Below are positions 5,598 through 31,220 of a DNA stretch of 39,303 bases, in pieces (position 1 is the first letter of the stretch; every line of letters starts with the position of its first letter). The notes beneath the pieces were generated by a model. That model was not told where the DNA came from. It was given only the letters and a program-made list of their open reading frames with translations, and searched no databases. The position numbers and the translations under genes were made by a program. Origin of the DNA: Scedosporium boydii (lineage: Eukaryota > Ascomycota > Sordariomycetes > Microascales > Microascaceae); assembly GCA_002221725.1 (NCBI GenBank), contig NJFT01000306.1, positions 1 to 39,303 of the forward strand, in the 5' to 3' direction.

Positions 5598-7590
5598 TTA
5601 CCAGAGAAAATAGGAATATCCACCATTGGGCATCCTTCCAATCCCCACCCGCTGGCTCTTCCCCTCAACCAGCTCGGAAAACATATCGTCCACCTCCATT
5701 ACCGGCGCCGTAGCCGTCGCAGGCTCAAACATGGCCGCCACCACGCTTTGAACCGTCGTCCGTTCCACGACCTCTTTCGTCTCAGGGTCCCGGACGGCCA
5801 AGATGGCGAATATCGTGAGAATCGCGCCGACCAAGCAATACAGAAAGTTAGAGACTAGAAGGGCCGCGAGCGGTGCTATGGGTATGCGAGAAACGATGGC
5901 CGGAGTGCGGTACTGGGCGGAGAATGCCGGAACAGGTCGTAGGGCGGTGACTGAAACGCTCACAGCGACGCGGCTGTATTCGGCTGCCCAGTTATCAGCA
6001 TACCTCTGTGCCGTTTCTGTATCCCCCGTGTAACTGAAAGCTTGGTAGGCATCGGTCACTCCGACACGCGCCTGCGTGATGGGACTGCTCAAGGCGTTGG
6101 TGACGGAAAAGTTGCTTCCGCGGGCGTCCCACTTCACGACGCTGCCATTTTGATACTGATAGGTAACATCGTACACTGTTGTCGTACAACCGAGGATCAT
6201 GGCGAGGTCGCCGTGCACCTGATAAGCGACCTCGAGGTCGTCTCGCGGATGGGGCCACGCTACTTCGAGGAAGGCAGCCACCAGAAGAGAATATGTGCTA
6301 CCCTCAACGCCGGTGGTGCTCAGTGTCTGCGTGAATTCGGGGTCATTGTAAAACTGTATTCGTATACCGCCGATCTTTTGGATATCTCCGGAAAAGCCAC
6401 TCTTCGTGCAGTTGAACGGCGTTGCGGCGCCGATGAATTTTTCGTATTCGAGGCCGCACTCGACGCTCTTGGGTATGCACGTCGTACTCATTGCGAACGT
6501 CTCCGCCGAATAATCCTGCACCAAATTCTGCTCTGTCGGCGCCGGGGCGAGGTAGAAATAAACGCGTCCCCCTTCGGCGTGATATTTCGCCGTGAGGGTG
6601 GAAGAGCGATTGCCCAGTACCGACATGCTAGTAATCGTGTCGTCCTCCACAACGAGGAAAGTATTTGTTGCCGCAGGGTTCAACGTGCAGGCGGGTTCGA
6701 CAGGGGCTCCGGGTTCTCTGTCAAAGTACCAGTTTGACTGTGCTCGGTAGGAGTTGTTGTTTATTAGACAACGTTCGTGAAGGTTTACGCTGAGATTTGT
6801 TCCGGGGCTCGGGGAGTAGCGATAGAGGTTTACGGCTTCCGTCGAAAGGTGTAGCCATGTATCGGTAACGGCGACGAGGAGACTATAATGTCGCACACGA
6901 GTGCAGTGCGAGTCAGCTCCCGTCCAATTGGGCCTCAGTGGCTGTCAAGGTAATTTGATGTTGGGAGGACATAATGGGGTGAAGATACCTTAGAAACACA
7001 CCCAGCAGGAGAATCCCCGACAGAAATTGAACTGGCGAAGCTAGCTTCGATCTTTTAGACTTGTATGCCGTAAAGTAGGTGAACAGTCTCAAAATGGTGC
7101 GCCAGACAGATCCCGCTCTCATCTCGAGCAACATCGCCAGCTGATAGGGGGTCGGAACGTTCGTGACATCCCCGTTTTTCAGTGCTGTTACGAATCTTCG
7201 ACTTGACCCATAGGAACCTAGCATTAGAACAAATCCGCTGAGCACCGCCGCCAGTGTACTAGCCCATGACGTAATTGTTGTGAACGTAGTCGCGTTGATG
7301 TCGACATAGACTGCGGCCTCAGACCTGAGCGACTCGACGAAGTGGTTGGGTTCTCGGAACTTAACCACCAGCACGATGAGAATGACGTTGAATATGAACA
7401 TTGGAAGAGTTACAACGGCAAAACCAAAGCAGATGTCTGTCCAGGTCCCCTTCATCCGTTGATTCTTGGGTCCTTCGACGCCGAGGGCAGGTACGGTAGG
7501 TAATATGCCCGTGACATGGCTGGGAAGTGACAGCCCTTTCCCCGGTTCGAATGATGAGTGCCGAATCTGGGGCTCTAGAGCATGAGACAT
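5598..7590 (-). CDS. Multi-pass membrane protein of unknown function, one-base frameshift
   Basis: Two long minus-strand frames (7590 to about 6920, then about 6950 to 5598) together make a protein of about 663 residues. Three hydrophobic segments lie in the first part (ICFGFAVVTLPMF..., TLAAVLSGFVLML, FLSGILLLGVFLRYL). A long, probably extracytoplasmic domain with several N-x-S/T sites and cysteines follows, then one more membrane helix (IPIAPLAALLVSNFLYCLV...) and a cytoplasmic tail. I know this architecture from uncharacterised ascomycete membrane proteins but cannot give a function. The frames differ by one base. They overlap in 6917-6950, where no GT donor exists, so an intron does not explain the switch; one surplus base (for example in the GGG at 6919-6921) does. 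A removed base makes the whole length a multiple of three. Start ATG at 7590. A diverged copy of the 5' end lies at 4900-5038. Confidence 0.7.
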
Positions 7591-9130
7591 TCCGATTAAC
7601 TGGCTCGGGTTGAACGTTCTGGCAACTTGGTGACCAGACTGGGAAATGGTGAGTCTTGGCCAGAAGCCCGGCGCAATCAGTGAATCGGGGATTTTGAGAT
7701 GGGAACGTGAGGATATGAACTTGTGAAGTGAGGGACCACCAGGCTGGGGCTGAAGACATCTGATCAGATGGGACCAATCGAGAGGGTCGGTAGCGCACTG
7801 TCTCCTTCAGATTGTGCTTGCGCTAATTCAGCATGGCGTTCAATAGTGCGATGCAACAGCAACAAGCCAACATAACACGGCCGGCCTACTTCCTGTTCTC
7901 TGGGTCAACTCAACGTTGCTCCGCTATTCCGAATTCGGGCACTTTCTTCGGATCCCTGCAATGAGACGAGACGTTCAATTCCACGCCTTTCAAAGTCAAT
8001 AGCACGAGAGGCTGGGCTGGACCCGCAGTGCAGTGTCCCTAATTAGAGTATCAGAAATTTGGTATTCCTTACAGAACAGAAAGTACGTAGTTGCGGTGTT
8101 CACTAGTGAAGAAGCAGAACGAAGTCGGGAAGTAGACAGCATCTAAACACCTTGAGGTCAGTTCTTTTCTCCATACTAGTTCTCGCCAGTTTCGGTCTGC
8201 TTGCCTCCACAAATATAAGAAGAACGCGTTTAGTCTGTGCTTGATGGTTGTACTTTGATGCTGTGTAGACTGCAGTTAAAGCGCCACCAGTGTTAATGAG
8301 CATACAATTTGAATACCCTGAATGTCAACTAAAATATATTGATATAATACGCAAGTAAGTTTCCTCTCCAGGCTACTACAATGGCTTCAACACAGGAACG
8401 GCGTGCGTTCGCAGAGTTCCACTGCCGACATGTTCTACATAATCACAATAATACAACGCCGAATTTCTTGTTTACTATGCCTTTTTTTTTTCTAGTCTCG
8501 AGATTTAAAGTAACTTTATACCTCACACGAGTTGACAGTCTCAAGAGAGAGCCAACACTTACTTACCGAATCCCCCAAAGCCCCGTAGGCCTTGCATTGA
8601 TACCGTAGATTGCTATGCCGCTGGGCAGCATCGGCGACGGACCAGACACACTCCGCTCCCTCCTCCGAATCGAGTATACTAGCAGGGCACCAGAAGAGGC
8701 ATAGCAGGGGTAGAGGCACGCGGAGAAACATGCAAAAGCAAGGAAGCGAAAGAGAAGAGACTACACTAACTCTGCCCCAAATTCCTTATCCGAATTCAGC
8801 ATCGCTGAGGCAGCTATCTGATTGCAGATGCCCATCGCGGACCCGTCCAACCCGCATTCAAATAGGCATCGTACATTAAAGCCTGGGTCAATGGCTGGGT
8901 TTGGAAACCCCGCAGGAACCGTGGCCATAAGAGGACTCGGCGGATCAGAGGGATGTAGTAGTCGGCGGGAAAAAGTCTGAAGGGGGTACAAGGAGGAGTC
9001 GGATGGTTAGGTGGCAGCTTGATCTTATCCAGTGGGGGTGGAGGGTCCTGGGAAGATTCCAGATTCCATTCCCATCCCCCAGTTACAATGCCCTCCCACT
9101 TGATGCAGATCTGACACCGGGAGGCCGTGA
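7591..9130. other. Intergenic, no gene recognised
   Basis: The 1.5 kb between the membrane-protein start and the LysM relic holds only short overlapping frames without recognisable domains. The part next to 7590 must contain the membrane-protein promoter. No repeat family was recognised. Confidence 0.45.
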
Positions 9131-9899: not shown

Positions 9900-12602
9900 T
9901 TAAACTAAATCAATTTCCCTGTGCATATTACCGAGTGCCTGGTACAATAGCCCTGCAGTACTCCTCGCCATATCAGACTTCTTACCTAAAAACCAGAGCC
10001 CCTTAATACACTCCTTACATCGCCTTAAACTCTCCTCGCAAGTTTCACCTTCATGTCCTAGATCCGTCACCTTCGTCTTCCATAAATCTTGTGCCCGAGC
10101 GATGTGCAGGGCTCCTGCTTTTGTAAAGGCTCTGATAACAAGCACCGTCCATGGCTCAGTGAGAATTGTGCACTTGTTGACGGCGAAATGGAAGTCAGGT
10201 GGTGGTATGGACTGGGACTGGGAATTAGATTGGGGCGTAGCATCGCCGTACGTCGAGTCTGCTGCCCCGGGGGGCACGGAAACCCTCGCCAGGTCAGATA
10301 CCTCGTTGGCGCTAGCCTTCCGGATTCTCTCGGCGACCTTGTTCTGGATACGAGCTCGGCCGGCTTCTGTATTGCCGAACTGCGTCCTGTCGACAAAGTC
10401 AAGTAGGTCGGCAAACAGTAAGGCAGCCAGGTGCCAGTGCGCTGATATGCAAAAGAACCAGCTCTGGATTCGGGGAGGTACACAAGGGAAATCTCGGACG
10501 AGGTCCTTAAAGAACGCCCCATAGGTCGTGTTCCAGTAGCGATAGAGTGACATGGCACTCTGGATGATGTCCTCCACAGAGCCGGGGTGCTCCCTCCTTC
10601 GAAGCGAATTTTGCAACCATGAAACATGCCGGAAAAGTAGGACCTTGACTGGGCCTGCTCGGGTTACCGCCTCGGCGGCGGCTTCGTAAGAGCATGGCCA
10701 GCGCGGTATGTGTTTTGGCCTCTCTGGATCATCCTGGATGAAAAGCGGCGTTGACCATCGTCGAATAGACAGTCCGGTCTGGCTGGGTTTCGAAAGGGCG
10801 TCATTCGTTGATGTCTCAGCAGAAGCAGTTGCGTTGCAGTGCTGAGAGTCCTCGTCAGCGACAACAACTGGTCTCTCATTCATCGACGAGGAGACAGTAT
10901 CGAACATAACAGCGAGCCAATATACAAGACCCACAGTCTTTTCATGTTGTTGTACTTCATCACATGACGATGAGGTTTCCGGCGTTCGTCTGTCCATTTC
11001 TCTGCCTCGGCCGCCTGATATTATGCCTAGCTGTTGAGCATCCCAGTGGAATTTTAATGAGTGAGCCTTGCGTATCGCGCTCTCTAGGTGGGTAGGCGTG
11101 CCGTCTTTGGCGATGGCCGCCTCAAGTCTCGCCGCCAGGGGGTTACTACTATCGTGAAGGGCCCCGCGGAGATGTCGTGGCTGGATTTCGAAGTGCTCAA
11201 TATCCTCAAAGTCCCATGGTTTTTGGCAAAGTCCAAAAATAAGCCCAGCACAAGTAACCCTGAAGCACTCTATGCCGGAGGTTTTTCGAAGCGCTTCCTG
11301 AGCCTGCTCCCAGAACGAAATTTGAATATTGCGATCAAACTCCTGTCCCAAGTCGTCCACATTGAACCTCTCCGATGCCGGCCCGTATCGTTCCCGTTCG
11401 CGATGACTGCCTTGTGCCCATTGACTAGTAAAGGCCATGATGGCAAGGTGCAACGCCTTAGTGGCCGCTTGGTTCTCCTTCGCAGTTAGCCGAATGAGAC
11501 CCGTAGAGCGGGCATATCGGTCTAGCTGAATAACGCGGGAGTATATTCGGTTGGACCAAGTGCTGCCTTGCTCCTCCGCCGTCCATCGAGATCGGCCCTG
11601 CGTTAATAATCTCATGCTCGCTTTATCCGTGTATGGACAAGTTTCCTCAGTTAGCCAACAAGAAAGGCTGTGCTCTAATACGTCGTGGTAGATACGGAAC
11701 AGACTCTCCGAAATCATAGTGTTGTTCGATTGCGACACGATTGCCTCGTTGAGTGCGTAAAACGAAAAGGAAGGAGCCTGTGGTTCTTGCCACGCACTTG
11801 ATCGCCGACTGAATGGGTTCCGCGAAGATACATACAGAACACCGCGATCTTCCTCGTCATCTAGGTCCTGGTTTAGGCGAGTGTTCTCTGAGCCCCAGGA
11901 TGACGCAGGGAAGCCGACACTCTGACGCGGAGTTTGCTCTGTCTCCCATCCGGGGGACACACCGAAACCCATGTCAACGGCTCCGGGCTTTTCAGTAGCT
12001 TCAGAGAGGAGAAGTTCCGGCATTCCGAACTGGAGCGCCTGGTGATCATCTAGGAAAAAGCAGGGGTTCGGTGTGAGGGAGGAAAAGGGGTCGGGCTCGA
12101 GCGCGAGTACAGGAAGCTTGTCTAGCCATGCATGCGATGCGGTACCTTCGTGGAAGCCTGGTTGATTCTGTAACACACGAGTGTGGGCCGGGTCGGGCAT
12201 ACTTGTCATCGTCGTCGCCGTCGATGTCGTCGATTCAACAGCTATTCGTGTGTCGGGCACAATGTTCTCTACCGGCCGGTCAATTGAATCTGACCTCCGC
12301 TGGCGCTTGGCTAGTCCGTGGGTCATATGAGGTTTGCGATCCTCGGCATCGCTTCGGCGTCTCGATCGTCGTGTCGACTGGAGCTGGGCATGCGCCCAGG
12401 TGTATGTACATTTCTTTCCCGTCCTGATGCAATAGGCGCACGGCTGGGATAGATCCTCGACTTCTAAAGAAAGGATTAGACGCCCGTAAGCCGGTTCTCA
12501 GATAGGTCCGGAGGAGCCGCGCTTACCACCGACAGGAAAGACATTCGAGCAAGCTCGTTTTGATCGCCGACATTGATCGCAGGACCGATTCTGGCGACGC
12601 AT
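9900..12602 (-). CDS. Zn2Cys6 transcription factor with fungal-specific regulatory domain
   Basis: Two exons: 12602-12527 and 12463-9900, with a 63-nt intron (12526-12464, GTAAGC...TTTAG). The product is 879 residues. The N-terminus carries a binuclear zinc cluster, C8-x2-C11-x6-C18-x15-C34-x2-C37-x6-C44, split by the intron in the loop, followed by a basic stretch (STRRSRRRSD) that would contact DNA. The central and C-terminal parts resemble the fungal transcription-factor (MHR) domain, with a block SLFRIYHDVLEHSLSCW near residue 280. The start at 12602 is chosen because it gives the complete cluster directly after MRRQNRS; the Met at 12326 would lose it. Its 5' end faces the 3' end of the Baeyer-Villiger gene, so it is a candidate local regulator of the 13.5-19.7 kb genes, probably through CGG/CCG pairs like those at 15923-16383. 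Target and inducer are unknown. Confidence 0.9.
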
Positions 12603-13457
12603 CGTCTGCTCGCGACACGACCTAAGTCGACAGAGATATAAAATATTCGCCTGGGAGTTAATTTAGAATAATAAAATACAATCGGGTGTCCGATAGGAAT
12701 GCCGCGTGGATGGCGCTGGCGCTGTCCTCATCAAAGCTGATGCAAAATGGGGTTGTGGTGCTTGGCGAGAGATCGATGTGTGGGGCTTCAAGGATTCCAA
12801 GAACGTGAAAAAGCTCTGATCTGTCATCAGAGGCAAGAGACCTATATGTAACCTTGTTCGGTTCTCCATTCGCTACCAGAACGTAGTCCGGTCCACCGGA
12901 GCCCCTATTTCCCCGCCTTTTGCGGGGGGCGGGAGCAGGTATTTTACTATTGGACGAAGTGGTCGCTGAAGGTGCACGCTAGGCTCAGTTAGTTCCATGC
13001 AGCAGAGTCCTTTCGTATACTGTATAAAGTAGAGGGACTTGACTGGAACATATTCTTGCTAGTTCATTCTGTTCAGCTTTGTACAGATACCACCGTGGAA
13101 ATATTTCTCAAGAATCACACCTCAGATCGACGGAGTACCGATGTTGATGCATGGCTAGTACAAAAGTAACCTGGCGCACCACCGGCATCAACTCGCAGGC
13201 ACTAGACCTGGACGAGCTTGGAAAAGTCAGCCCAACATGCAAAGGCGAAATTAAGCTCCAATTTTAAAGTCGAACCTGCAGGGCTCTTCCTGCTACAGTG
13301 GGTCAAGCAGCCTGGTCAGAGGTCGGGTGGGGTAATACGAAGTAAGACATCAATGAATCAATCAATGATCAATATCTGCAATATTTCAATTTAACTCCCT
13401 AAAACTACTGGCCTGAAACAATTTCGATATCTTTGGCCTGGACTGACGTGGAGGTTA
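12603..13457. other. Regulator promoter and intergenic region
   Basis: No gene recognised. The part next to 12602 should hold the regulator promoter. A small inverted repeat, CCCCGC-CTTTT-GCGGGG, lies near 12911-12927, with AGCCCCT just before it that resembles a stress-response-type element. I saw no copy of the GCGGATCCGC palindrome here. Confidence 0.4.
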
Positions 13458-15522
13458 TTAAGCCTTCACAATATCAAACCCAGCCATGCTGTCCAAAGCT
13501 TGTCGAATTTCCACAGCGTACGCGGGAATACCGCCAACGTAGCAGACAGGTTCAAACACCTTGCCCGGAATGCTGCCGCCCATGTACGTCGACCTTGTGG
13601 TGGGGAAGAGAGTGGCGTTATTAACTTTAACGAGCTGGTCCTTCCACTCCTTACAAGCCTCGGTCTTGGGGTTGATGTATTGGATGTTGTTCATTTCCAT
13701 CTTGCGGATGCAATCGGCGATCCACCTGCCCTGAACCTCGATCGTCGAGGGCCCGTTGCTGAAAAGCGTCGGGGCATGCGCTCCATAGAGATGGAACATG
13801 TTGGGGTAGCCACCGACAGTCAGGCCGAGGAAAGTGGAGGCACCAGGGGCCCATTCGTCTTCAAGTTTGGTCCCATGGATACTTTCAAGCCCCAGTTGGG
13901 TCATCACTGTCAAGTCATGTTAGAGTTGAACTCAGAGCAATACAAAGCGGTGTTCATGGGTTGGAGCATTCATCATGCATGCATACCTCCAGTGACAACA
14001 TCCTATAAATTTTCGGTGAGAACGAAAAGTCAGTCAACGTCCTTAGCAGCCAGAAAAGGCTGGAAAAATAAACTCACGAATCCGGTCGCGACCGCAATCA
14101 CATCGAACTCATGATGAGATCCATCTTCGAGGATGATTCCCGTCTCGGTAAACTCCCTGATAGCATTATCCTGAATGTCAACGACGTCGACAGACGGCCG
14201 GTTAAACTGTTCGTAGTAGGTGGCCTCCAAGCAGGGTCGTTTAATGCCGAAGTAGTGAGGCATCTCGAGTGGTGCAAGAAGGTCCTTCAACCTGGGATCA
14301 TCGATCCTGGCCCTCGTCTTCTTAGCCCAGAAATTGTAGGATTCCTTGTTCGCTTCTGGGTTAAAGAGGTTGTCTTTGTAGAGACCGACCCAAAATCGGA
14401 ATCCGCCTTCATCCCAGACCTTCTCGTAAAAGGCCTCACGCTCCTCGGGTGTGTCGTCGAACGTGTTCTTCTCGTACCAGCCATAGTGGAACCCGGCAAA
14501 GTTCTTCTCACGGAAACGGAAAAGCTCGGGGTATAGGGCCTTCTTATTGTTCTGCTCCTCCTCGGTGTAATAGCGCCGACGCATAGGCACGGCCAAGTTC
14601 GGGGTGCGCTGGAACACCTTGAGGGATCCCGCGTTGGGACCCCAGGCCTGCACAATTTGTACACCTGAAGCGCCTGTACCGATAACGGCACAGCGCTTTC
14701 CACGAACATCGATTTCTTCGTCGGGCCAGAAGGAGGAGTGGTGCATGATGCCCTTGAACTTGTCCATCCCGGGCCATGGCGGGAAGTATCGCTTCGCGGC
14801 CTGTAGACAACTTTGTGTTAATAATAATAATCGGCTGCAACGGGCTGTAATTGCAGTCGCGGAAGAATGCGAGGGATGGATGGGCCCCCTTTCTGATGAC
14901 TCTTAGAAACGACAACTTACAAATCCAGTACCAAGAATCAAGTACTTGGCCTTGGTCGTTCGACCGTCGGCAGTTTGCACATTCCATCGCCCAGATGAAG
15001 TGTCAAACTTCGCACCAGTGACGACGGTGTTAAAGGCACAGTTTTGTTTGATATTCAAAACCTTGTCGACGTGATCAAAGTAGGACCGGAGTTCTTTGTA
15101 GTCTGGGTAGTTGGTCGACCAGTTCCACGTCTTCCAGACCTCTGGGAAGGAGAACTCATACTCCGGGATTTCCGAATCGACGGCGGCTCCAGGGTAGCAG
15201 TTCCATCGCCAGGTGCCGCCCATATCATTACCAGCTTCATAGATCACGGCATTCATGCCACGGTCCCGAAGCGTCTTGAGCATGAAGATACCGGCTATGA
15301 TGAGAATATTCAGTGGTCAGTCGTCGAATTACCAACTCGAAAAGTTTTGAGTGCTTGCAAAACAACCTGGGGACCGTATTTACCAAAGCCAGCGCCGACG
15401 ATCAAAGCGTCGACCTCAAGATTGTTGGCATAGGGGCCAGCTGAATTAGTTTGGGGCGTGACGGCATAGTCGGTCAAGTCCGTATTGAACTTCTTAGTCG
15501 TGTCAACGGTTTCTTCACGCAT
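13458..15522 (-). CDS. Baeyer-Villiger-type flavin monooxygenase
   Basis: Five exons: 15522-15384, 15294-14921, 14800-14078, 14002-13987 (16 nt) and 13906-13458, giving 566 residues with all phases consistent. The introns are 89, 120, 75 and 80 nt. The first Rossmann motif GAGFAG (43-48) is made by splicing exons 1 and 2. The Baeyer-Villiger fingerprint F-x-G-x3-H-x3-W-P is at 186-197 (FKGIMHHSSFWP), the second nucleotide-binding motif GTGASG at 212-217, and ATGF closes exon 3. The microexon supplies the DVVTG loop that joins ATGF to the C-terminal domain. Such enzymes use FAD, NADPH and O2 to turn ketones into esters or lactones in the cytosol. The gene diverges from the SxxK hydrolase at 16600, sharing a promoter with palindromic motifs, and is next to a Zn2Cys6 regulator. 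The substrate cannot be read from sequence. Confidence 0.93.
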
Positions 15523-15922
15523 GTTGCTGTGTAAAATGGTCTACCAATTAGCGAAGATGTAAGTGATTTGATAGAATGCGATCGATAGCAGAGAGTTGCT
15601 CTGTTTCAGTAGATCCGAGTGAGAGTGTGAGTGTGGGAGAGGAATGGATTTATCTCCAACTCAAGGATGCGAGGTCATCTTCTTAATTACACCAAATGAT
15701 ACTATCACGAAGCATTTGCTCGACTGCCCGCACACTCGAATGTAACCGCAAGAGCGTGGATTGTGGCGGGACCGACATGATGTCGAGGATCACAGCACCG
15801 GTCGCGATACGCGTCGTCACCATAGGAACCGCAACGCAGGCCAGCACCAGCCTGCACGCAACATGCCTCCATCTCGTCACAATGCGTAGTAGTGTAACTG
15901 GAATTGCTGGCGACAGTCGAAG

Positions 15923-15932
15923 GCGGATCCGC
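15923..15932. promoter_or_regulatory. GCGGATCCGC palindrome, copy 1
   Basis: A perfect 10-bp palindrome with two CGG triplets in inverted arrangement (CGG-N2-CCG overlapping at AT). The same ten bases recur 102 bp away inside a longer palindrome. It is a candidate binding site for a dimeric zinc-cluster protein. Confidence 0.45.
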
Positions 15933-16024
15933 ATGAACGATGAAAACCAGGCCATGGGAGGCCTGGGGAGCCTGGGGAATGGAACCAAGATCAAGGACTC
16001 GAATGCCGACACCATCAGCTTCAC

Positions 16025-16038
16025 CTGCGGATCCGCAG
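16025..16038. promoter_or_regulatory. CTGCGGATCCGCAG palindrome, copy 2
   Basis: A perfect 14-bp palindrome whose core is identical to the site at 15923-15932. Its length makes chance occurrence in a 1-kb promoter uncommon. It is a candidate operator shared by the two divergent genes. Confidence 0.5.
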
Positions 16039-16599
16039 ATGTATCACTGCAGTCGCCAACTCGGCTCTCAGCTTTGTGCGGGGTAAAAATACCGATTCCA
16101 AATCGGGTTCCGTACAGCATGCGTTGGGCATGCTTCGTTGTCCATTTTCGGTTAAGTCGACTATCTTCCCCACGAAACCTTAAACCCGGTCCGAATCTCA
16201 TGGCAACCCCCGCACCGAACCCGCCCTACTTCATCTCCCCCAGTCATTACTGGAAACTGCAGGTCATATCCCCGATCGTGGGGTACTTTGTAGAACTCGG
16301 AGACGCGGAGCCGCAAGTATCCCTCGTGATCGGTCCCGGTCGTGGACTTTGGAGTCTCTCGTGGGCTCTCCGAGCCGGCGGAGTTTGGTTTGGCCGAATT
16401 TGAACCCCGCTCTGTACTTGTAGATCTTCTCATGTCTTAAGAAGCGTGCATCTTCATGTAACTCGCCTTCATATCTACTCCTAAAGCACACCACGAACTT
16501 GCTAGTAATCAAAACAAACCACAAACCTCTTTTCCAACATCTCGCTTCTTTGACGTTATTCCACCATCGAATTCTTGCCCTTCGCCAACCCATTGCAAG

Positions 16600-17980
16600 A
16601 TGCCCTTTAACCCGGAAACTGTCGACCGCCTGCGGGCTATTGTGGATGGGGCTTGTGCCGACCCGAATACCGGGGTCCCTGGAACGACCGTGGTCGTCGT
16701 GGGAAAGGATGGCAAGGAGCTCTTCGCCCACTCTGCAGGCAAGCGAGGCGTCTCATCGAATGAACCGATGACTCTCGAAAACATCTTTTGGATCGCGTCG
16801 TGCACTAAGATGTTGACAGGCGTAGCATGTATGCAGTTGGTTGAGCGAGGACTTCTCACTCTTGACGATGGAGTGCAGCTTGAAGATATTTGTCCCGAGC
16901 TAAAAACCCTTAAGGTTCTTAAACCTGATGGGACGTTTGAGGAAAAGAAAAATCGTATTACCCTGCGCATGTTGCTCACTCACACTGCCGGCTTTGGCTA
17001 CGCTTTTTTCAACGAACGGCTTCGTGACTGGGGTTTCCCGGCCGGAGTAGACGAATTCTCTGGTCGCATTGAGGACATGATGACACCGCTGTTATTCCAG
17101 CCTGGCGAAGGTTGGGAATATGGTGTAAGTGTAGCTTCATTGATGCGAGGACTAGACGCTAACCACCACACACAGGTCAATCTCGATTGGGCCGGCATCG
17201 CGTTGGAACGTGTGACCGGTTTGACGCTCAATGACTACCTCCAGAAGAATATCATTCAGCCGCTCGGTCTGAAGGACATGAACATGTTCCCGTCCCCTTC
17301 CATGCGGTCTAGGCTGGCGTACATGCACTCCAGAGAATCAGACGGTACGCTGCGGCCGAGGGACCACCTCCACCGTGCTCCCTTGGTCGTGGACCTAGAC
17401 GACAAGGCCGAAGTTGCTCGAATATTCAATAGCGGCGGGGCTGGCATGTTCGCCAAGCCACAGGAGTATGTTAGTAAGTTAGATCCATTTTACTTTCCAC
17501 CTATGTCTATCCAAGCATATGCGTTTGGTTAGCCCTGGACAAGATACTGATGGCTTTGACGTAGAGGTGCTCGCCGTTCTGCTAAACGACGGCACTTGCC
17601 CGCGAACCGGGGTCCAGATTCTACAGAAGGAAACGGTCGATGTCATGTTCACTAACAACATACCCAAATTCCCCGACTTTGGCCGGCAGGGGATTCCGGC
17701 TGCGAAGCCGGACCTAACGGGGGCTATTCCCGAAATTTATCCCGTGGAGGGACGGCCGCCCCAGGGATGGGGATTAACGTTTATGCTGACTAATGGTGGC
17801 CCAACGGGGCGCTCTCGGAGTACAGCAATGTGGGCTGGTCTCGCGAATCTTTGGTGGTGGTGCGATCGCGAGAAGGGTGTTGCGGGTATGGTCTGTACTC
17901 AGATTCTTCCCTTCGCAGATCTTAAGGTGTTGGGGATGTGGTTTGAGCTCGAGACGGAGGTGTATAAGGCGCTATCCTGA
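16600..17980 (+). CDS. SxxK esterase / acyltransferase (LovD-like, class C beta-lactamase fold)
   Basis: Three exons: 16600-17124, 17176-17473 and 17565-17980, encoding 412 residues, very close to the usual size of LovD-type transesterases. The nucleophile motif S67-C-T-K70 follows FWIA. HTAGFGY is near 129. W-E-Y174-G-V-N-L-D is restored at the first splice site and offers the general-base Tyr. WAG (364-366) lies near the C-terminus, where the third active-site element of the fold sits. Family members either hydrolyse esters or move an acyl group between a carrier and a natural product. The first intron (17125-17175) is 51 nt and has no stop, so its retention would insert 17 residues. There is no signal peptide, so it should be cytosolic. 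It diverges from the Baeyer-Villiger gene; hydrolysis or transfer of the ester made there is an attractive but unproven role. Confidence 0.9.
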
Positions 17981-18888
17981 TGAGATTAACGACGTTGAGG
18001 ATGCGCGACTACTCGCCGCTGATGTTATTAGTATTCAAGATTACCAGAATTAAGTTGATTTACTGTTTCATGGCCGTTCAACCTGTCAACTTTTAACCGA
18101 GGAAACCTGCCGCGTTTGTCAGGTACCAAACATTGCAAGAATAATTTCAGCCTTCTCGCAACGACGAGGCTAATTCTCCGAAATCTACACATCGTTTTAG
18201 GGGAACAATATTATTTGCATTACGCCTTCCTGGTCATGTTCCCCTTAGGCTTGGGTTGGGGATTATCTGTCCAAGAACACTGGATCCAAGCTCATGTCAG
18301 CGAACGAGAGCCTGGGATTGGCAAATATTCACGGCCGTCGTGCCAGGTAGTCTTGGAACATTCCAAGGTTTCAACTCAATACAATAAGCCAGGCTCGAAG
18401 CTGTCAATACCCTACCTCAATGGTGTTAATATGGATCGAACAGCTTTAATCTCGGCCCCAGATGGCTTCATATTGCGCATCTAGGCAGGGAAGGCGGACT
18501 TGAAAGCCGTCATTTACCCCACTTTCGGATTTTCAGCTGGTGGACACTGGCGTCTGGGTTTTGGGGGCGTGATTGTGTCCATTGGACGCCGCAAATCTTG
18601 CGTCTCTGAGAGGTCATCAAATTCGGCGCATTCATCGCCACAGCCCCGCCTCTATTCTATTTGTGGCGCAGCCGACCGAATTGGGGAGAGAGGAGATGAC
18701 ACTTCAGGCATCAACATAGCCAGCCGCTTTGATGCTGCCTAGAATGCACAACGGAGATCACCGAGGATGTCAATCCAACGCCATCGTAGATAAATAGACA
18801 AGTCTGGGCGAGAAATCCGGATGTTCTCAACCACCAACATCTTTTGCTTTTATAATTTTTCCAAATCCAGCTATAGATACCGTTCAAC
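17981..18888. other. Intergenic, promoter of the dioxygenase gene
   Basis: About 0.9 kb with a 122-codon frame (18116-18484) that resembles nothing I know and is not annotated as a gene. A 7-bp inverted repeat CTTGGAA-CA-TTCCAAG lies at 18352-18367. A TATAAT-like element near 18851 precedes the dioxygenase start at 18889 by about 40 bp. I saw no copy of the GCGGATCCGC motif. Confidence 0.4.
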
Positions 18889-19740
18889 ATGCTACAACCG
18901 GTCGTTTATACCTTCAATGACATCTCCATTCCACCTACCTTCCTGGCCGACCCGCCGCTGACGGCGATAACAACCAAACACATTGATTTCGCCTCGTCTC
19001 CCTTGCCAAAGAATGCAGGGCGCATTGCCCTCGTCCTCGAAAATGTCCTCTCAAAAGACGAGTGTCAGGAGCTTCTCCGCCTCGCCGAAGCCTCTGTGCC
19101 GGGAGGGAATGGTGAGTCACCGTGGAGACCTGCGCTGGTCAGCGCAGGTCCGGGATTAGAAGGGCCAGCGCCAGGTTATAGAGAGAGTGACCGGATTATT
19201 TGGGATCAGCAACAAGTGGTGGATCTCCTCTGGGCACGGTGTTCTCAGGCGGAGGGTCTGAAGGAGCTCCTTGCAACAGTACCTGGTGGGCCGAGATGTG
19301 GAAAGGGGCATTGGCAATTTAGGAGATTCAATAATCGGATGAGATTCCTGAAATACTCCCCAGGGCAGTTCTTCAAGCGTATGTGTTCTTCCATGAATTA
19401 CCTTTGAGATAGTTTCGGATAATGACTAACAACTTCGCTGGTAGCTCACGTTGATGGGCCCTATTGGTACGAAAACGAGCAGGGTACCTTTGAGACACAA
19501 TACACGGTGCATCTTTACCTAAACGATTCAGTCGAGGCCGATCCAAACTCTACGCTCGTGGGTGGCGCAACTTCATTTCTATCGTGGGATCGGGAGAAGC
19601 GTTTGGATGTGAACCCGAGGGCAGGGAGTGTCTTGATCTTCCAGCATTCGGGTTTGCTTCACGAAGGGGCTATCGTGAAAACCGGCACGAAATATACAGT
19701 CAGGACTGATATTATATATCAGTGGGTTCCGGAGACATAA
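18889..19740 (+). CDS. 2-oxoglutarate/Fe(II)-dependent dioxygenase (prolyl 4-hydroxylase-like)
   Basis: Two exons, 18889-19378 and 19445-19740, with a 66-nt intron, give 261 residues. The metal triad is visible: H165-V-D167 (PHVDGPYW, whose Pro codon is formed by splicing) and distal H236 in LLHEG. R250 in KYTVRTDIIY is the probable 2-oxoglutarate carboxylate ligand. The fold matches the P4Hc / 2OG-FeII oxygenase superfamily, whose members hydroxylate protein or small-molecule substrates with O2, Fe(II) and 2-oxoglutarate. There is no signal peptide, so cytosolic or nuclear. It follows the SxxK hydrolase on the same strand at a distance of 0.9 kb and may belong to the same pathway, although stand-alone fungal proteins of this type also occur. 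Confidence 0.88.
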
Positions 19741-20615: not shown

Positions 20616-21985
20616 TTAGAATAAGTCGACCTGACTTGGTTCCGTCCCACATTCCATGGCTGGGTGGGCACCGGTTCGTACTAGATTGACTGGCGTCGTC
20701 TTTGAGTGTAAAACCACGAGAGGGTTGAGGCCTTGAGGGCTCTGGCTCTTAGCAGCACGGCTTACGCTCCAACACTGTCCGGTCGCACTCCCGATTGTGG
20801 GCAATCTGACGGAATAGATGCCTGGCGTTGAGTTCCCGCTAGCCGTGCGAATGAGGACTCGGAAGGTCGGTATACACGCGGCGACGATAGTAATGGATCC
20901 CTCGGCGGCGTCCCAAATGATGGGGTTGACAGTGTCATCTGTGTTATGTAGGCACGTAGAGTGCGGTTAGAAACGCGACGTTGGTCAACGGGGTCAAGAG
21001 TCGAGTTGCTGGGAAGGAATTACATAGATCATCGGTCAGCATCCGGGGAAGCTTAGCTGTTTTGATTATGGTCGTGATTCCAGCACTATTCGGGGCTCAC
21101 GTTAGTCCTGTTTCCCGGATTTCCTCTAGTATGGTGGAATGTCACACAATATACCCATGCTCATAGCAATAGCAGTACCAAATTTTTCTCGTCGCCTCAT
21201 ACGGAGACCAATGAGGATCTTCCAGGGTAGTGTAGCGAGAACGAAGTCCACAGTTCTGGAGTAGGCTAGAACACATCTCGTTTAGTATGGTCACCGCTTA
21301 GTACGGCGGACGCCCTTTGTGACGGAGAAAGCACATCAATTAATGTGAGGAGCAGACTTACCACCGGCGAATATGCTGTAGTACACCACTGTTTTACGGT
21401 CCCAACACTTTCCCGGTACATCGAGGTCCCACTGCTTTGAGAGGGGCCGGCATTGAGTCCACCCAAAGAGGGCGCTGAGGCCCAATGCAATATTCACGGT
21501 GACAATGATGATCCACAAGAGCCTCTTGATATAGCCTTCGGTGACACGGAGAAGGGTGATGGCAACCGCGGGTTTAGTCCAGGCAATCGCGATTATACTA
21601 AACGTAAATCGGACCAAGGTCTGGATGACAAAATCGCGAAGATTTTGAGGGGGGCAGATCCCAGGTATGCTTCCCATAGCCAAATGCAACGACCATATTC
21701 GTCGTGACGCCTGATTGTACAAGTAGAAAGGCCTTGAAACAGGTCATCACCGATGGCAAGTTTATCGTCAATGGAGGAAACAACCGAAGAGTACCGTACC
21801 CAAGAAGCGATCAAGATATAATCGTCCCACCAGAGACAGCGATTGCTGTAGAATTTGCAAAATATCCGCAAGCTAAGGAAGAGAGAGGCAAATCCCGTTA
21901 GAGCCCAGGTTGCTGCAATGAGGCTGGGCCCTTTATCATCGTGAGGAAGCCGATCTAGTTCCTCTAGAGTCCACGCCGCTTCCAT
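20616..21985 (-). CDS. Seven-helix rhodopsin-like membrane protein (SAT4/PTH11-related), one-base frameshift
   Basis: Five exons: 21985-21800, 21732-21362, 21265-21148, 21085-21024 and 20938-20616. The introns are 67, 96, 62 and 85 nt. Family hallmarks are LWWDDYILI in helix 2, LPPQNLRDF, helix 3 with WTKPAVAITLLRVTEG, WTQCRPLSKQWD in the loop after helix 4, VDFVLATLPWKIL in helix 5, FGTAIAMSMGIFAGIT in helix 6 and WDAAEGSITIVAACIPTFRVL in helix 7. These proteins sit in the plasma membrane; some relatives (PTH11) act as G-protein-coupled sensors, most are uncharacterised. Within exon 2 the frame changes at a run of six Cs (minus strand; plus 21649-21654): five Cs would keep DLPPQNLRDF in frame and make 352 residues with all exon phases correct. 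As written, translation would go out of frame there. Start at ATG 21985; the short N-terminus is normal for the family. Confidence 0.82.
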
Positions 21986-24274
21986 GCTCAATTTGTAATT
22001 TAACAATTTGGGGCGAAGAAGGGCCGATTATCGCCGCTCTGTTGAAGAGGCCCAGAACGAATTGACAGTCATGCTTGGTATCGCGATGCGGTTGGGCTTT
22101 CTGGGTTCCGGACTGTACAGCTCACATCGTCGAATCGGAGGGTCTGGTTGAACAAGAGGTTCAACTTCGTGACTTTACTGAGAGAGGAAGAAGGGAGGGT
22201 TTAAATGGGAAGCTCCTCGATCTGATGATCACCGGGGAGATCTGCATTGGTTCATTGTGGTGTCAATGCGTTTTGTCCTGGTCAGTGTCAGACGACCCAG
22301 GGGTAACAAGCCTTGCCAGTGCCCCGGACCATTCATGCAACGGGACGGCCCCCGGGAGTAGCGTCCCAGATTTCGCTTCCCAGAGGCACAAAGCGCCAGA
22401 CTAGTGCTTGTTAGCCACGGCACCATTGAAGCCTCAACTTCGTAGACTTCGTACGATCAATTGCAGTGCCTCTGAAACGAGTAAACTAATCTCTTACAGT
22501 CAATAAGGACTGGGAAATTGAAATTGACGGGGATGATAGCGCTCGAGAAGCCGGCTCCTCCGCCAACAAATATGAAGCCGTTGGGACATTATGCCGTGGT
22601 TGGGTTACTGAATCAGGGGGTTCACGAAGTTGTCCCAGAAAACCGGGTTCGTGATGAAGTTGGTGGAAATGGGCGCTAAACCGCATCTGGATGTATTACC
22701 AGAATGGTTCAAAGTAACGCCTGGCTTCGACTGCCCGAACCCGAACGGCCGGAGGTGACATCGACAATTACCACGATCTTCTTACCTGTCGAAGACGTAT
22801 TCAGGTCCATGAGATCTCAGATTGAACCCCAACGAGCAATTGACAAGATTTCTGATGGACGAAATACACCAGGTACATTACTGATAGGCCTTATTGCCTC
22901 GGTCAATGACGTCGACAGGATCGGTCTCGGTAACTGAAATTGTAAGACGACGAGAGCTGGGCCATGCCCGCCCCCGTCAGGTTGCCACCATCAACAACGT
23001 TGTAACGTTGGAATCGGTGACACCATCTAGCCAAAGCCATCCCCCCCTCAAGGATAATTTTTTTTATTTTATTTTTTTTATTTTTAAGCGACATCTGCCC
23101 TATCACCATCTCGCTACTTAGTAATAGATAATAGCTGAGAGATGGTTTTGACCCTCGTCCTCCGTCTTAATAACCGGTTCTCCGCTTTATCGAAGCCTTG
23201 TCGTTACCATCCAGCTCTGCAGCCGAAGCGAAATATCTCCGCAAATTTCCTCATTCCGGACGCCAAGCTCTTCCCAGAGTGTGGAGTTAGATCTTATATA
23301 GACCGTATCGTCGTCTATTATCACGTTTGTTTCACCGCACTCTCACACCTCTTATCGATGGAAGAATTGCAAATTACCTTCCAAACTTGCTGAAATTATT
23401 AAGTTCAATTTTATAAGCGAGAAATTTCAACAATCGCACCACGATCCCTCCTTTGTACTACTGAAAGTCTGTGGGCCTGCAGGACATCCCGATCCACAAG
23501 ACACCGGGTGGTGACATGATGACTGTGCCATCCATATCGAGAAGCCTCTCTGTGACGAACGGTAGCCACCGTCAACGACGAGACCCCCTTGTCCCAGAAG
23601 TATGCGAACGCGAATCCTATGCTGCGAATTTTACTTTACAAATCCCTTGAACTTCAATGGTTATTAGAGGAATAACGATACTTGAGATGCAGGAGATAGC
23701 AAGTATCGGATTTGCACCCACAAAACAGCCCAGGCCTTGACTCAGATCCAAAGGGACCAGAATCCGTACTAAAATTGTCAATTATTCGACGAGGACGATA
23801 TGAGGAGAGGAATCTCTACTACTTACGAGAGTAAGAAAAGAAAAAGCGATAAAATAGAGATCAATGTCAAATACCTCGTCTTATTGGTGAGTTGAAGACA
23901 GCTCGCTATTATTAAGGAAGGATCGGGGTTATGGTCCACATTCGCCCGAACTCGTGTATATGTACTGCGTACTTTATATATCTTGTTGGTAGAATTCCGG
24001 CACGTCTCCGGGTTACTACTGGGAAGTTATGCGCGAAAGTCAAGGAAGGGTTCTCAGCTTTTCTGCATGCAAAAACCCCGGTCACTTAGTAGCACGCTGG
24101 TTGCCGCTCGAGAGAAGTATTCCTCCAGGCACTAGGAAAGCCGAACAGAATAGCTGTCGAAATTCAACGATGCATATTTCCAGGAACATATGAACTTATC
24201 TTTCTTGAAGACGAAAAAGTCGACCGAGATGGCGACTAAATCATCAATAAGTAGATAGTACAAGTGGACGCTGG
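21986..24274. other. Gene-poor region, possible decayed sequence
   Basis: About 2.3 kb in which I find no supportable gene. The minus strand between 22230 and 22930 has several short fragments that look protein-like (for example FVGGGAGFSSAIIPV near 22540, and VTETDPVDVIDRGNKAY near 22900) but they are broken by stops and belong to no family I can name. T-rich runs lie at 23058-23090. From 23400 on the DNA is AT-rich with no frame of note. Confidence 0.35.
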
Positions 24275-24279
24275 AAAAA

Positions 24280-24310
<31 letters not shown>
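24275..24310 (+). repeat. Microsatellite A(14) then (GA)11
   Basis: Fourteen As (24275-24288) run directly into eleven GA units (24289-24310). It is a simple repeat in non-coding DNA and is likely to be length-variable between isolates. Confidence 0.95.
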
Positions 24311-25908
24311 TAAACGAGGATAATGTTAAGGTGATGCTACCGTTCAATCTCCTGCATATCGAGCACTGTGGAGAAAGGAGGATATCACGGGCGAGAGGAT
24401 GCCGTGTGGATAGCTTATCACCTTCAATTCGTTACTAAAACACCACGCCAACCTTTGTTTTGTGGGGAAGGGATTCCAATCCGTCCGTCCCCTCCCATTC
24501 AACTGCCGTTTCCGCACTCGCATCCACTGCGGCTACCCTTTGCCTATCCACTGAAGACCCGCGTGCTGTCTAGTAGCCACGACCTCCTGCTACGGTTGCC
24601 TGGATCCACCTTAAAATACAACTTCAAGTTCTGGATGAAAGACGACGGAGGCCATCTACTGTGGAAGCACGGCACTAATATATAAAAAAGGGATCGGTGG
24701 AGGTTTTAGATAATGGAAAGCTTGTTTATATCAAAAGTAGGCTTGGCGGGAGAGCGGGAAATAATTCCGGACTGAAGGAGGTCACGCCATTAAAGAATTG
24801 GGTTGGGTTGGCGATATAACACGCCACAGGACGGATTCTATGCCCCAATGTCGATGCTCCGGGGGTGGTCAAGTACAAAGGTTAAACTTCCACTCCTGCG
24901 AGCTTCAGCCCCTGGTCTTCTCTCCACAGATAATGCTGAGCCGTAAAGTGATCTAAAAAGAGGCCCATCTCTATCAAAGTGACATATGTCCTAAACAGTG
25001 CTGGGATGATCACTTTACATTGCGCTACCTAATTATTACATTAGACGGCTCACTCGATAAATATAAAACCAGGGGAAGCCTGAGCCATGACGATGATGGC
25101 ATGGCCGAGTGGTTGCGGCTATTTTATTGCATCACCATTCTTAATATCATGTACATACATAATAAGAAGGAAACCGCGTGCTCTGCGCTCTGCGATCGAC
25201 CAAATAGTGCGCAGCATAGAGAATTTGCCAAGTTCTAGCCAAATGAATGGGGCAAGGGAAGAAATTGAGGCTCAGAGATCCAAGTCATTCTCATCTGCGC
25301 TGGATGATGGTGTCTCCAGCCGAATGGGACTGGAGAAGCACGCGGAGAATATATTGATAGATAATAAAGAAGGTCACGAATTTCCCGCAGCCTCTGGGAT
25401 GCCTGCTTGCGCAAGCGTTGTATAAAAGGTCAGAAGGCCCGGGTAAAGAGTCGCTCAGCCAATGGACGATCTTACGAGCCCCGTTCAGGATTTGCTGGGG
25501 CTCTGGGGGCAATATCTATAATTGCCGGTGATATATTACATTCTTTTCCCTGTATTATTCCCCGGATATACGAGAGTCCATCCAACACCACAACATCCGC
25601 AATTTAACCCCATCCAATCCCATGAAGTCAACACCATTAAGGCACTTTGTCAGTCTCATGAGATTGGTCATGGAATATATCTCGATATTCACTCGGCGTT
25701 TCGGCTTATTACCAACAGCGGCAGTTCACACGTAAATGGCCACCAGATATCCCTCCTCAGGCTCAGCAGTCTTGCCTGCTGGCCATTCTTAAAGACCAAG
25801 GGAAGACATCGAACTCGGTCCAAACACCTCTTTCCTTTTCCTTCGATCCCCCAAGTTGCCATCGGCTTATTACTGTGCGACATTCAAGTTCAGTTCACCT
25901 ACTTCAAA
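24311..25908. other. Intergenic, promoter of the DUF1996 gene
   Basis: No gene recognised over 1.6 kb. Open frames of 105 to 112 codons (24368-24685, 25087-25425) have no recognisable domain. A TATAAAAG element at about 25422-25429 lies some 480 bp upstream of the next start codon, which would imply a long 5' leader if it is used. The open frame continues upstream of 25909 but without family-like sequence. Confidence 0.4.
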
Positions 25909-27327
25909 ATGCATTGGACTTCTCTTCTCGCCTTGACGGCGCTTGCCGAGGCCGCGCCCCAGTTCGGCGGTGGTGGTGGTGTTACCATGTTGCGATTCGG
26001 ATGCACCCAGGTCGTCATTGACCGCCTTGACCCCCTGGTCAACCCTGGCCAACTCCCCTCCACCCACGTCCACCAGATTGTCGGAGGAAACGGCTTCAAC
26101 GCCTCTATGACCACTGGTGATGTGTCGGAGACCGCGACGTGCACCACCTGCCAGTTCGCTGACGACTTCTCCAATTACTGGACCGCGAACTTGTACTTCA
26201 AGGCTAGGAACGGCACCTTCAAGCGTGTGCCCCAGTTCGGCAGCCCGTATGTAATTTTTTTTGTTTCTGGTTTTTGAGGGGCAAGGACACCTGTTCGGCT
26301 GGGAAATACAGTACTAACTAAACCTATACTCTAGACTTCAATTTGGTGACCAATTCAGCACCCAGATCAACGGTGGTATCCTGATATACTATGTCTCTGC
26401 TCAGCCTGGAAAGATTACTGCCTTTGCACCTGTAAGTTTTATTGCTATGGCGACGAAAAACGTACTGTAATCAAGAGCTGTTGCTGATTTTCCCGTTAGG
26501 GTTTCCGTATGCTCGTCGGCGACCCGGCCGACCGCGAGAGGCCCGCTAACCTGAAGAGGCAAAACTGTTTCCGATGCTACACCGGTCCCAACCACGGTGG
26601 TGACGTCGGTGCTCCCTGCCAGGATGCCGCGTAAGTTTGCGCCGCCTACGGCCCTTCGTGATTTTATTTCTCTTACTTATTGGCTGTCTAGCCACGACCA
26701 CGACGCCTTGCCCAACAAGGTCTGCCCCGGTGGCATCCGATCCAACGTTCTCTTCCCTACGTAAGTCGTTCACCTTCCCTGTGATTCTCTAGTAGCGCGG
26801 AATATTGACAATTACAAGCTGCTGGGACGGCAAGAACCTCGACACCCCCAACCACAAGGACCACGTTGCGTACCCCGTCAGTGGTCCCGCCACTTTCCTC
26901 AGCCTTGGCGGCAACTGCCCTGCTACTCACCCCGTTCGCATCCCTCAACTCATGTACGAAGTCAACTGGGACACTTCCGGCTTCAACGACCAGTCTCAGT
27001 GGCCCGAGGATGGCTCCCAGCCCTTCGTGCTCTCCATGGGTGACCCGACGGGCTTCGGCCAGCACGCCGATTACGTTTTCGGCTGGAAGGACAAGTCGCT
27101 CCAGTCGGCCATGGACACTTCCGGCTGCTTCGGCGCCCAGTGCGCTAACCTCAAGAGGCAGAGCATCGACCAAGCCAGGTCTTGCACTGTTCCCACTCTT
27201 GTCAACGAGGATGTTGACGGCTGTAAGTCTACCTCCTTAATCAATTCACCACTCGACAAGTCATCAGGTAGCTAACGAGACAAAACTAGGGCTCACCACT
27301 CTCCCTGGCGTTGACGTCGTCGCTTAA
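25909..27327 (+). CDS. Secreted DUF1996 protein
   Basis: Six exons: 25909-26246, 26335-26431, 26500-26630, 26692-26760, 26819-27222 and 27290-27327. All phases agree and 358 residues result. A signal peptide (MHWTSLLALTALAEAA) with likely cleavage after Ala-15 or Ala-16 is followed by a Gly run and the DUF1996 domain: MLRFGCTQVVIDRLDPLVNPG, THVHQIVGGNGFN, CTTCQFADDFSNYW, the HDHDALPNKVCPGGIRSN block, and CWDGKNLDTPNHKDHVAYP. The start at 25909 is chosen because it begins the signal peptide, although the frame is open upstream. DUF1996 proteins are secreted or wall-associated in filamentous fungi and their biochemical role is not established; conserved Cys and His residues suggest disulphides and perhaps metal or glycan binding. 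It is intact and looks functional. Confidence 0.93.
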
Positions 27328-30349: not shown

Positions 30350-31220
30350 AGAGTCTCGAGTCAAAATATTACTATTATTCTTCCTACGAAGCTGTAACGA
30401 GGTCTAGAATCTAGTGAAGAGCCCTAAATATCATATTTCGTTAGTTTTTACGTTTAAGCCTCCACTGCAATCTCGGAACACATTTGAGGCGTGACCGAAA
30501 ACGGCAAGATTTAAGATGCCGTCTTATGCAAATGACTTCTAATATAACCTCTCTCCCTCCTTTACGCTGAATGTTGCTATAAAGGTTCCTCGTTTGAATC
30601 GAAATAAATATGGTGGATCGGATGGCGTTCAAAGTTAGCGGAACTTTTGCGAACGACGGAGGCGCGGTATGCTTCTCTCTTATTCCATTCCACGATCTCT
30701 CAGACTGGCCACCTCTCACAGCTGAACCATCTGGTTTTAAGAAGAGTAGTAGAAAACAAGAATGAGGACAACAAGCGGGCCCCTGCACCTGTGGTATAGA
30801 TAATCCGGGGTTCTGGTCGAGTCACGCATCACCCCGTTTATTTAGGAATTGATGTTTCATCAATGGCCATGGAAAATCATATAATTAACAGCTGGACACC
30901 TTCGTGCGATAAATGAAAACCAATGTTCCGAGCAGAACGGATATAGAGGACTAAGTCGGACATAATGCCAAGGATCACTATTACGGATGAGCTGTAGGGA
31001 CTGTTTTGGAGATGTAATGATGGCTTTCCAATTGTCCTCGGAATCCATATTTTACCAGCCACGAAAAAAATGAAATAGATCTGATATTACGCTCTTGTGG
31101 AACCCATATCAAGAATATAAAAAGCGTTGGAATGAAGGCTTTGACCCTCCACGGAGGAAGATTTTCATAAGCATGTGAAACGAGTGAAGAACCTAGGATT
31201 GAGCATTTGCGTTCTAAGCC
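30350..31220. other. Intergenic between convergent genes
   Basis: No gene recognised between the aldo-keto reductase (+) and the carboxypeptidase (-). A minus-strand frame of 115 codons at 30441-30788 has no recognisable domain. Confidence 0.45.

What the first reader, a model, noticed from the sequence alone, without database searches (positions are those of the whole stretch)
9900..19740. Candidate uncharacterised ketone-processing module: regulator, Baeyer-Villiger enzyme, SxxK esterase/transesterase, 2OG dioxygenase
Four adjacent, apparently intact genes have complementary chemistry. A Baeyer-Villiger enzyme turns a ketone into an ester or lactone; an SxxK (LovD/class C) protein can cleave or transfer an ester; a 2OG dioxygenase can hydroxylate the product or precursor; a Zn2Cys6 regulator lies next to them. 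No polyketide synthase, peptide synthetase or terpene enzyme is visible here, so a small degradative or tailoring unit is more likely than a full biosynthetic cluster. The grouping is an inference from position and enzyme class.
Basis: partly seen in the sequence, partly recalled or inferred. Interest (0 to 1): 0.75.

Follow-up and report, generated by a model that had tools for sequence, protein, structure and literature searches.

The report
Fungal ketone-cleaving two-gene module
Two neighbouring genes in this fungus, one that turns ketones into esters and one that probably splits esters, stay side by side in many moulds, so they look like a small ketone-breakdown unit; the third enzyme next to them is probably an unrelated neighbour.

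Summary
[quoted passage not shown] The four-gene module is not supported as written. The conserved unit is the divergent BVMO/SxxK pair: in 34 of 40 fungal species with named rows for both, the rows have equal contig length, and locus tags are consecutive in 8 of 8 species where both show. The dioxygenase shares a contig length with a partner in 1 of 22 species (1 of 24 with two added by eye) and its orthologue has a prolyl-hydroxylase fold. The hydrolase's best family is bacterial methyl acetate hydrolase AcmB (277 bits, below the 550-bit cut-off), whose gene lies beside a BVMO gene in Gordonia. The shared 1,077-bp promoter holds five CGG-N2-CCG sites (0 of 2000 shuffles reach five). Most likely mechanism: ketone to ester, then ester to alcohol plus acid; substrate unknown. 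Fungal BVMO-then-esterase logic is known from VidF/VidP, with another esterase. New variant of a known kind, moderate interest.

The parts
13458..15522 (-). Type I Baeyer-Villiger monooxygenase, 566 aa; exons 15384-15522, 14921-15294, 14078-14800, 13987-14002, 13458-13906
   Evidence: the best 120 database rows are at 66-77% identity and 91-100% coverage
16600..17980 (+). SxxK serine hydrolase (family VIII / class C fold), AcmB-like esterase, 412 aa; exons 16600-17124, 17176-17473, 17565-17980
15523..16599 (.). Shared divergent promoter region of BVMO and SxxK (1,077 bp)
15767..15774 (.). CGGN2CCG site (CGGGACCG)
15923..15932 (.). GCGGATCCGC palindrome, contains a CGGN2CCG site
16027..16036 (.). 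GCGGATCCGC palindrome, contains a CGGN2CCG site
16306..16313 (.). CGGN2CCG site (CGGAGCCG)
16331..16338 (.). CGGN2CCG site (CGGTCCCG)
9900..12602 (-). Zn2Cys6 transcription factor, 879 aa; exons 12527-12602, 9900-12463; candidate regulator, membership unproven
18889..19740 (+). P4H-type Fe(II)/2-oxoglutarate dioxygenase, 261 aa; exons 18889-19378, 19445-19740; probably a neighbour, not part of the module

Best explanation
The unit is a two-enzyme ketone-cleavage module. The BVMO uses NADPH and O2 to insert an oxygen next to the carbonyl of a ketone, giving an ester (or a lactone from a ring ketone). The SxxK enzyme (S67 nucleophile, K70 and Y174 as general bases) then hydrolyses that product to an alcohol plus a carboxylic acid, which enter central metabolism. 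The genes are transcribed divergently from one 1,077-bp region that carries an array of Zn2Cys6-type sites, so both could be switched on together. Shown: the genes, their catalytic motifs, their conserved linkage, the site array. Inferred: the enzyme chemistry (from family), that the hydrolase acts on the BVMO's product, that it hydrolyses rather than transfers, co-regulation, and that the role is catabolic. Unknown: the substrate and the regulator. The 2OG dioxygenase is most likely a bystander.
For: Equal contig length of the two rows in 34 of 40 species, nine of them on contigs under 110 kb and one of these 6,102 bases long, and consecutive tags in 8 of 8. AcmB model hit at 277 bits over residues 12-410; four fungal orthologues given to the same library score 242-282. 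Three other PF00144 reading frames of this genome (L001, L002, L003) score at most 42 against that model. S-C-T-K and Y174 invariant in 19 of 19 aligned sequences, the window's included. BVMO fingerprint intact; nearest solved structures are BVMOs. acmA and acmB form a bicistronic operon in Gordonia TY-5 and do acetone to methyl acetate to methanol plus acetate (PMC6215540, passage). Five CGGN2CCG sites in the shared promoter: 0 of 2000 shuffles with five or more; 2 of 2000 when any spacing from 0 to 15 counts.
Against: The AcmB score is below the curated cut-off (277 against 550), so it is not an AcmB equivalog by that test. LovD, a transesterase, gives the best PDB sequence and fold matches, so acyl transfer is not excluded. 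Three partial LovD-like frames of this genome also hit the AcmB model (94-134 bits). None of 29 fetched bacterial AcmB-family loci had a BVMO match in the 7.9-13.0 kb held, nor did any of the 80 loci, so the family as such is not tied to BVMOs. SxxK rows occur without a matching BVMO row, as in Lomentospora (88% identity) and the second copies of Sarocladium and Ilyonectria (lists capped at 120).
Confidence: 0.62

Rival explanations
1. The SxxK enzyme is a LovD-like acyltransferase, and the pair tailors a secondary metabolite made elsewhere.
For: LovD is the best PDB sequence hit (147 bits) and best fold hit (TM 0.70); BVMOs act, or are proposed to act, in fungal biosynthetic clusters (PMC4117958 and PMC5943271, passages).
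Against: Higher score against the AcmB model than against LovD (277 and 147 bits, but from different kinds of search). No PKS, NRPS or terpene domain among the 24 models given to Pfam. Both proteins occur at 66% identity or more in many unrelated mould genera.
Confidence: 0.13
2. The pair cleaves a steroid or similar side chain: ketone to acetate ester to alcohol, as VidF and VidP do in the demethoxyviridin pathway.
For: Several sources name the BVMO orthologues 'steroid monooxygenase'. VidF, VidP and VidH cleave the pregnane side chain, and the authors report such clusters as widely distributed in fungal genomes (PMC5943271, passages).
Against: VidP is annotated there as an arylesterase of 354 aa and a dehydrogenase VidH belongs to the trio; here the hydrolase is PF00144 and the next genes are the TF and the dioxygenase. 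The names are untested annotations. VidF was not compared because its sequence was not at hand.
Confidence: 0.15
3. All four genes form one regulated module, with the 2OG dioxygenase acting on the product or precursor, in this lineage and perhaps a few others.
For: Four genes contiguous in 9.8 kb.
Against: 21 of 22 species show different contig lengths, five of them with tags that prove one assembly. The 2OG promoter has no CGGN2CCG site. Its fold class is prolyl hydroxylase, which mostly modifies proteins (the latter from established knowledge). One coincidence on a contig of this size among 22 species is not rare.
Confidence: 0.08
4. The genes are chance neighbours.
For: No expression data were at hand.
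Against: 34 of 40 species with equal contig length, 8 of 8 with consecutive tags.
Confidence: 0.02

Closest known systems
acmA-acmB operon of Gordonia sp. TY-5 (acetone monooxygenase plus methyl acetate hydrolase)
   Same: A type I BVMO next to an esterase; the best NCBIfam model for the fungal hydrolase is AcmB over residues 12-410.
   Different: Eukaryotic, with introns and divergent transcription instead of one operon; the hydrolase scores half the AcmB cut-off; of 585 sampled genomes in two bacterial classes only 3 gave a BVMO match at E <= 1e-130, all at 43% identity; substrate unknown.
VidF / VidP / VidH of the fungal demethoxyviridin cluster
   Same: Fungal BVMO followed by an esterase (PMC5943271, passages).
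   Different: VidP is annotated as an arylesterase, a dehydrogenase belongs to the trio, and they sit in a 19-gene cluster.
LovD and PcEST (SxxK acyltransferase and lovastatin esterase)
   Same: Fold and SxxK/Tyr catalytic set; 26-28% identity in the fold alignments of the Pleurostoma orthologue.
   Different: No PKS domain seen in this window; I recall no BVMO partner for either.
CAMO of Cylindrocarpon radicicola and BVMO AFL838 of Aspergillus flavus
   Same: Fungal type I BVMOs; 5j7x, which I recall to be AFL838, matches at 600 bits; AFL838 prefers aliphatic ketones (PMC4966971, passages); CAMO takes cyclic and linear ketones (PMC5225235, passages).
   Different: No partner hydrolase is mentioned in the passages that I saw; the CAMO sequence was not compared.

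Membership tests
Type I Baeyer-Villiger monooxygenase | FxGxxxHxxxW(P/D) fingerprint | tested here: met
   FKGIMHHSSFWP at residue 186
Type I Baeyer-Villiger monooxygenase | Two GxGxxG nucleotide-binding motifs | tested here: met
   GAGFAG at 43 and GTGASG at 212
Type I Baeyer-Villiger monooxygenase | NADPH- and FAD-dependent ester formation | not testable with these tools
   needs purified enzyme
SxxK serine hydrolase (family VIII esterase / class C fold) | SxxK plus catalytic tyrosine, and the fold | tested here: met
   S67-K70 and Y174 invariant in 19 of 19; fold match on the Pleurostoma orthologue, mean pLDDT 70.6
AcmB methyl acetate hydrolase | NCBIfam NF052559 curated cut-off, 550 bits | tested here: not met
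   277 bits
AcmB methyl acetate hydrolase | Gene beside a BVMO gene | tested here: met
acmAB acetone pathway | BVMO is an acmA orthologue | tested here: inconclusive
   acmA itself was not at hand; no match at E <= 1e-130 in 296 genomes of the class of G001 (no positive control), 3 of 289 in the class of G003, each 43%
LovD acyltransferase | Polyketide synthase neighbourhood | tested here: not met
   no PKS domain among the 24 models given to Pfam; this window only
LovD acyltransferase | Acyl transfer activity | not testable with these tools
   needs assay
VidF/VidP/VidH side-chain cleavage | Arylesterase-type VidP and dehydrogenase VidH with the BVMO | tested here: not met
   partner is PF00144; the adjoining genes are a TF and a 2OG dioxygenase
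P4H-type 2OG dioxygenase | HxD..H iron site and the fold | tested here: met
   H165-V-D167, distal H236 inferred from LHEG at 235; best fold hits of the Neonectria orthologue are prolyl hydroxylases

The most novel reading that the evidence does not exclude
This is the fungal counterpart of acmAB: a conserved, dedicated and co-regulated gene pair by which Pezizomycotina use methyl ketones or acetone as carbon, giving the missing genes for subterminal alkane and ketone breakdown in moulds, under a Zn2Cys6 regulator that reads CGG-N2-CCG.
Probability: 0.25. Interest if true: 0.58.

Novelty: new variant of a known kind. Interest (0 to 1): 0.38.

Why it matters
The physiological substrates and roles of BVMOs are described as widely unknown (PMC4498894, abstract passage). 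A partner esterase that stays beside one BVMO lineage across many moulds gives that lineage a testable job and a ready-made two-step biocatalyst. It would also offer genes for a fungal ketone-to-ester-to-acid route whose chemistry is reviewed in PMC4192553 (section 3).

Tried and rejected
Four-gene module: rejected for the 2OG gene (1 of 22 species).

Bacterial origin of the pair: the genome-contig scan with the SxxK alignment kept 80 loci of 314; tblastn with the BVMO (E <= 1e-5) matched none of these 80. 26 of 394 genomes in the class of the Streptomyces genome G001 had AcmB-family hits at E <= 1e-80, 28 places in all; I fetched all 28 plus one Chimaeribacter locus; 0 of 29 had a BVMO match in the DNA held. 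Three bacterial BVMO loci (3.9-4.6 kb held) had no SxxK match. So no bacterial donor is claimed.

Horizontal transfer shared with Stylonectria: suggested by 35-tip trees of both genes. With all 120 rows the SxxK joins Lomentospora (support 1.0) and then three Verticillium rows and Clonostachys rhizophaga (0.869), not Stylonectria; the BVMO stays near Stylonectria with weak support (0.57, then 0.735). Dropped. The correlation of the two 35-tip trees (r 0.578, 0 of 2000 permutations as high) is weak evidence, since shared species history gives it too.

Duplicated module in the same genome: no second pair seen; next BVMO 46%, next SxxK matches 27-45% in pieces.

Identity of 6y48 (best PDB match of the BVMO, 878 bits): the paper search listed one unrelated paper.

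Growth of Graphium and other Microascales on propane or acetone: a recalled lead; the search listed three papers, none read.

In print: I saw no description of this pair in the listings (open-licence PMC papers only); that does not show that none exists. No paper was read whole: passages of 11 papers and one section of PMC4192553.
Full report
Setting. The window is numbered G000:C306:1-39303 in a 42.9-Mb, 442-contig assembly. The genes have introns and the nearest SxxK protein listed is from Lomentospora prolificans (88%), so this is an ascomycete, probably of the Microascales; the species is not known to me.

The observation. All four genes are present and open. Models: TF, minus strand, 12527-12602 and 9900-12463, 879 aa. 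BVMO, minus strand, five exons between 13458 and 15522, 566 aa; SxxK, plus strand, three exons between 16600 and 17980, 412 aa; 2OG dioxygenase, plus strand, two exons, 18889-19740, 261 aa. Pfam gives Zn_clus, FMO-like, Beta-lactamase and 2OG-FeII_Oxy_3. The motifs looked for are complete. BVMO and SxxK are transcribed away from each other from a 1,077-bp region.

What travels together. The protein search gives, for each row, the length of the longest contig that carries it, and often a locus tag; the lists are capped at 120 rows. Among named rows, 40 species appear in both the SxxK and the BVMO list. Nine of these contigs are shorter than 110 kb, and one, of Trichoderma ceciliae, is 6,102 bases. 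In the 8 species where both rows show tags of one ordered series, the tags are consecutive in all 8 (for example NLU13_0253/0254, FZEAL_5441/5442, G7046_g2663/g2664). Of the six species that disagree, Diaporthe eres and Penicillium atrosanguineum carry tags from different assemblies; the other four (Fusarium oxysporum, P. chermesinum, Trichoderma virens, Verticillium dahliae) I could not resolve. Equal contig length is a proxy: contig names, orientation and distance were not shown. The species span Sordariomycetes and Eurotiomycetes (classes recalled). The dioxygenase behaves otherwise: in 22 species with rows for it and for a partner, contig lengths agree in 1, Clonostachys rhizophaga; in five of the 21 others the tags show one assembly, in the rest assemblies may differ. 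Two more species, seen by eye, also disagree.

The hydrolase. The best NCBIfam model is NF052559, methyl acetate hydrolase AcmB, 277 bits, E 1.7e-82, residues 12-410; the curated cut-off is 550. Four fungal orthologues score 260, 242, 274 and 282. Among other PF00144 reading frames of this genome, L001 has no listed hit to it at E <= 1e-5, L002 42 and L003 33 bits; the partial LovD-like frames L004, L006 and L008 score 134, 125 and 94. By PDB sequence and by fold the nearest solved proteins are LovD, PcEST (lovastatin esterase in the entry titles) and other esterases of this fold (model of the Pleurostoma orthologue, mean pLDDT 70.6, with three low-confidence stretches). So it lies between AcmB and LovD by score; hydrolysis is the more likely activity, and it is inferred.

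The BVMO. The best PDB match is 6y48 (878 bits), then 5j7x (600) and 6jdk (548). I recall 5j7x as the Aspergillus flavus enzyme AFL838; the paper PMC4966971 reports that AFL838 prefers aliphatic ketones (passages). At E <= 1e-130 no match was listed in 296 genomes of the class of G001, and 3 of 289 in the class of G003 gave one, each at 43% identity. alone shows little, as the tool notes, since it had no positive control.

Regulation. The shared promoter holds five CGGN2CCG sites (15767, 15924, 16028, 16306, 16331); two are full GCGGATCCGC palindromes, the only two in the window. In 2000 dinucleotide shuffles of the region none had five or more, and 2 of 2000 had five or more for any spacing from 0 to 15. 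The whole window has 14 such sites with 8.5 expected (7 of 100 shuffles reach 14), so the excess is local. The promoters of the dioxygenase and of the TF have none. That TF has a 74% paralogue at C108:3108-5811, and searches with the BVMO, SxxK and dioxygenase listed no match on C108. Its neighbourhood could not be read.

Mechanism. Ketone plus NADPH plus O2 gives ester or lactone (BVMO); water and the SxxK enzyme split it into alcohol and acid. The order of steps, the catabolic role and the link between the two enzymes are inferred from family chemistry and conserved linkage. Precedents: acmA and acmB in Gordonia (PMC6215540, passage) and VidF with VidP in a fungus, where the esterase is annotated as an arylesterase (PMC5943271, passages). 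Yeasts form decyl acetate from dodecan-2-one (PMC4192553, abstract), and the introduction of that paper reviews hydrolysis of such esters in bacteria and in the mould Cladosporium resinae (section 3).

Against my reading. The AcmB cut-off is missed. 0 of 29 bacterial AcmB-family loci have a BVMO match in the fetched flank, so the AcmB label does not by itself imply a BVMO partner. Lomentospora has the SxxK at 88% but no Lomentospora BVMO is among the 120 rows listed, which may be loss, annotation or listing depth. Second SxxK copies without a BVMO row exist in Sarocladium strictum and Ilyonectria robusta. The SxxK of Clonostachys rhizophaga, the one species with the dioxygenase on a contig of the same length, falls in the same small clade as the window's SxxK, so a lineage-limited link to the dioxygenase is not closed.

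Verdict. Observation confirmed; interpretation partly supported. The conserved pair is worth a biochemist's attention; the dioxygenase should be dropped from the claim for now, and the regulator left open.

Noticed in passing
window 2510-3384, +: A degraded alpha/beta hydrolase (Abhydrolase_3) with an in-frame stop inside a conserved stretch and a change of frame further on; pseudogene or sequence error.
   Followed up: partly
G000:C108:3108-5811: A 74%-identical paralogue of the window's Zn2Cys6 regulator; searches with the BVMO, SxxK and dioxygenase listed no match on that contig.
   Followed up: partly
database rows P0031 and P0274, Clonostachys rhizophaga: SxxK and dioxygenase rows share a contig length of 319,576, the only such case in 22 species; this SxxK is in the six-member clade of the window's protein.
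   Followed up: partly
window 29186-30349, +: An open aldo/keto reductase frame 9.4 kb from the dioxygenase; the next match in the genome is 36% identical; no link to the pair was tested.
   Followed up: partly
window 5598-7806, -: Two long overlapping frames of a probable membrane protein without any Pfam match; the 448-aa frame 5601-6944 has no second copy in the genome.
   Followed up: partly
window 20616-39303: Neighbours: fungal rhodopsin-domain protein, DUF1996 protein, S10 carboxypeptidase, CDH-cyt protein and a PhoD-like phosphatase; nothing that marks a biosynthetic cluster.
   Followed up: no
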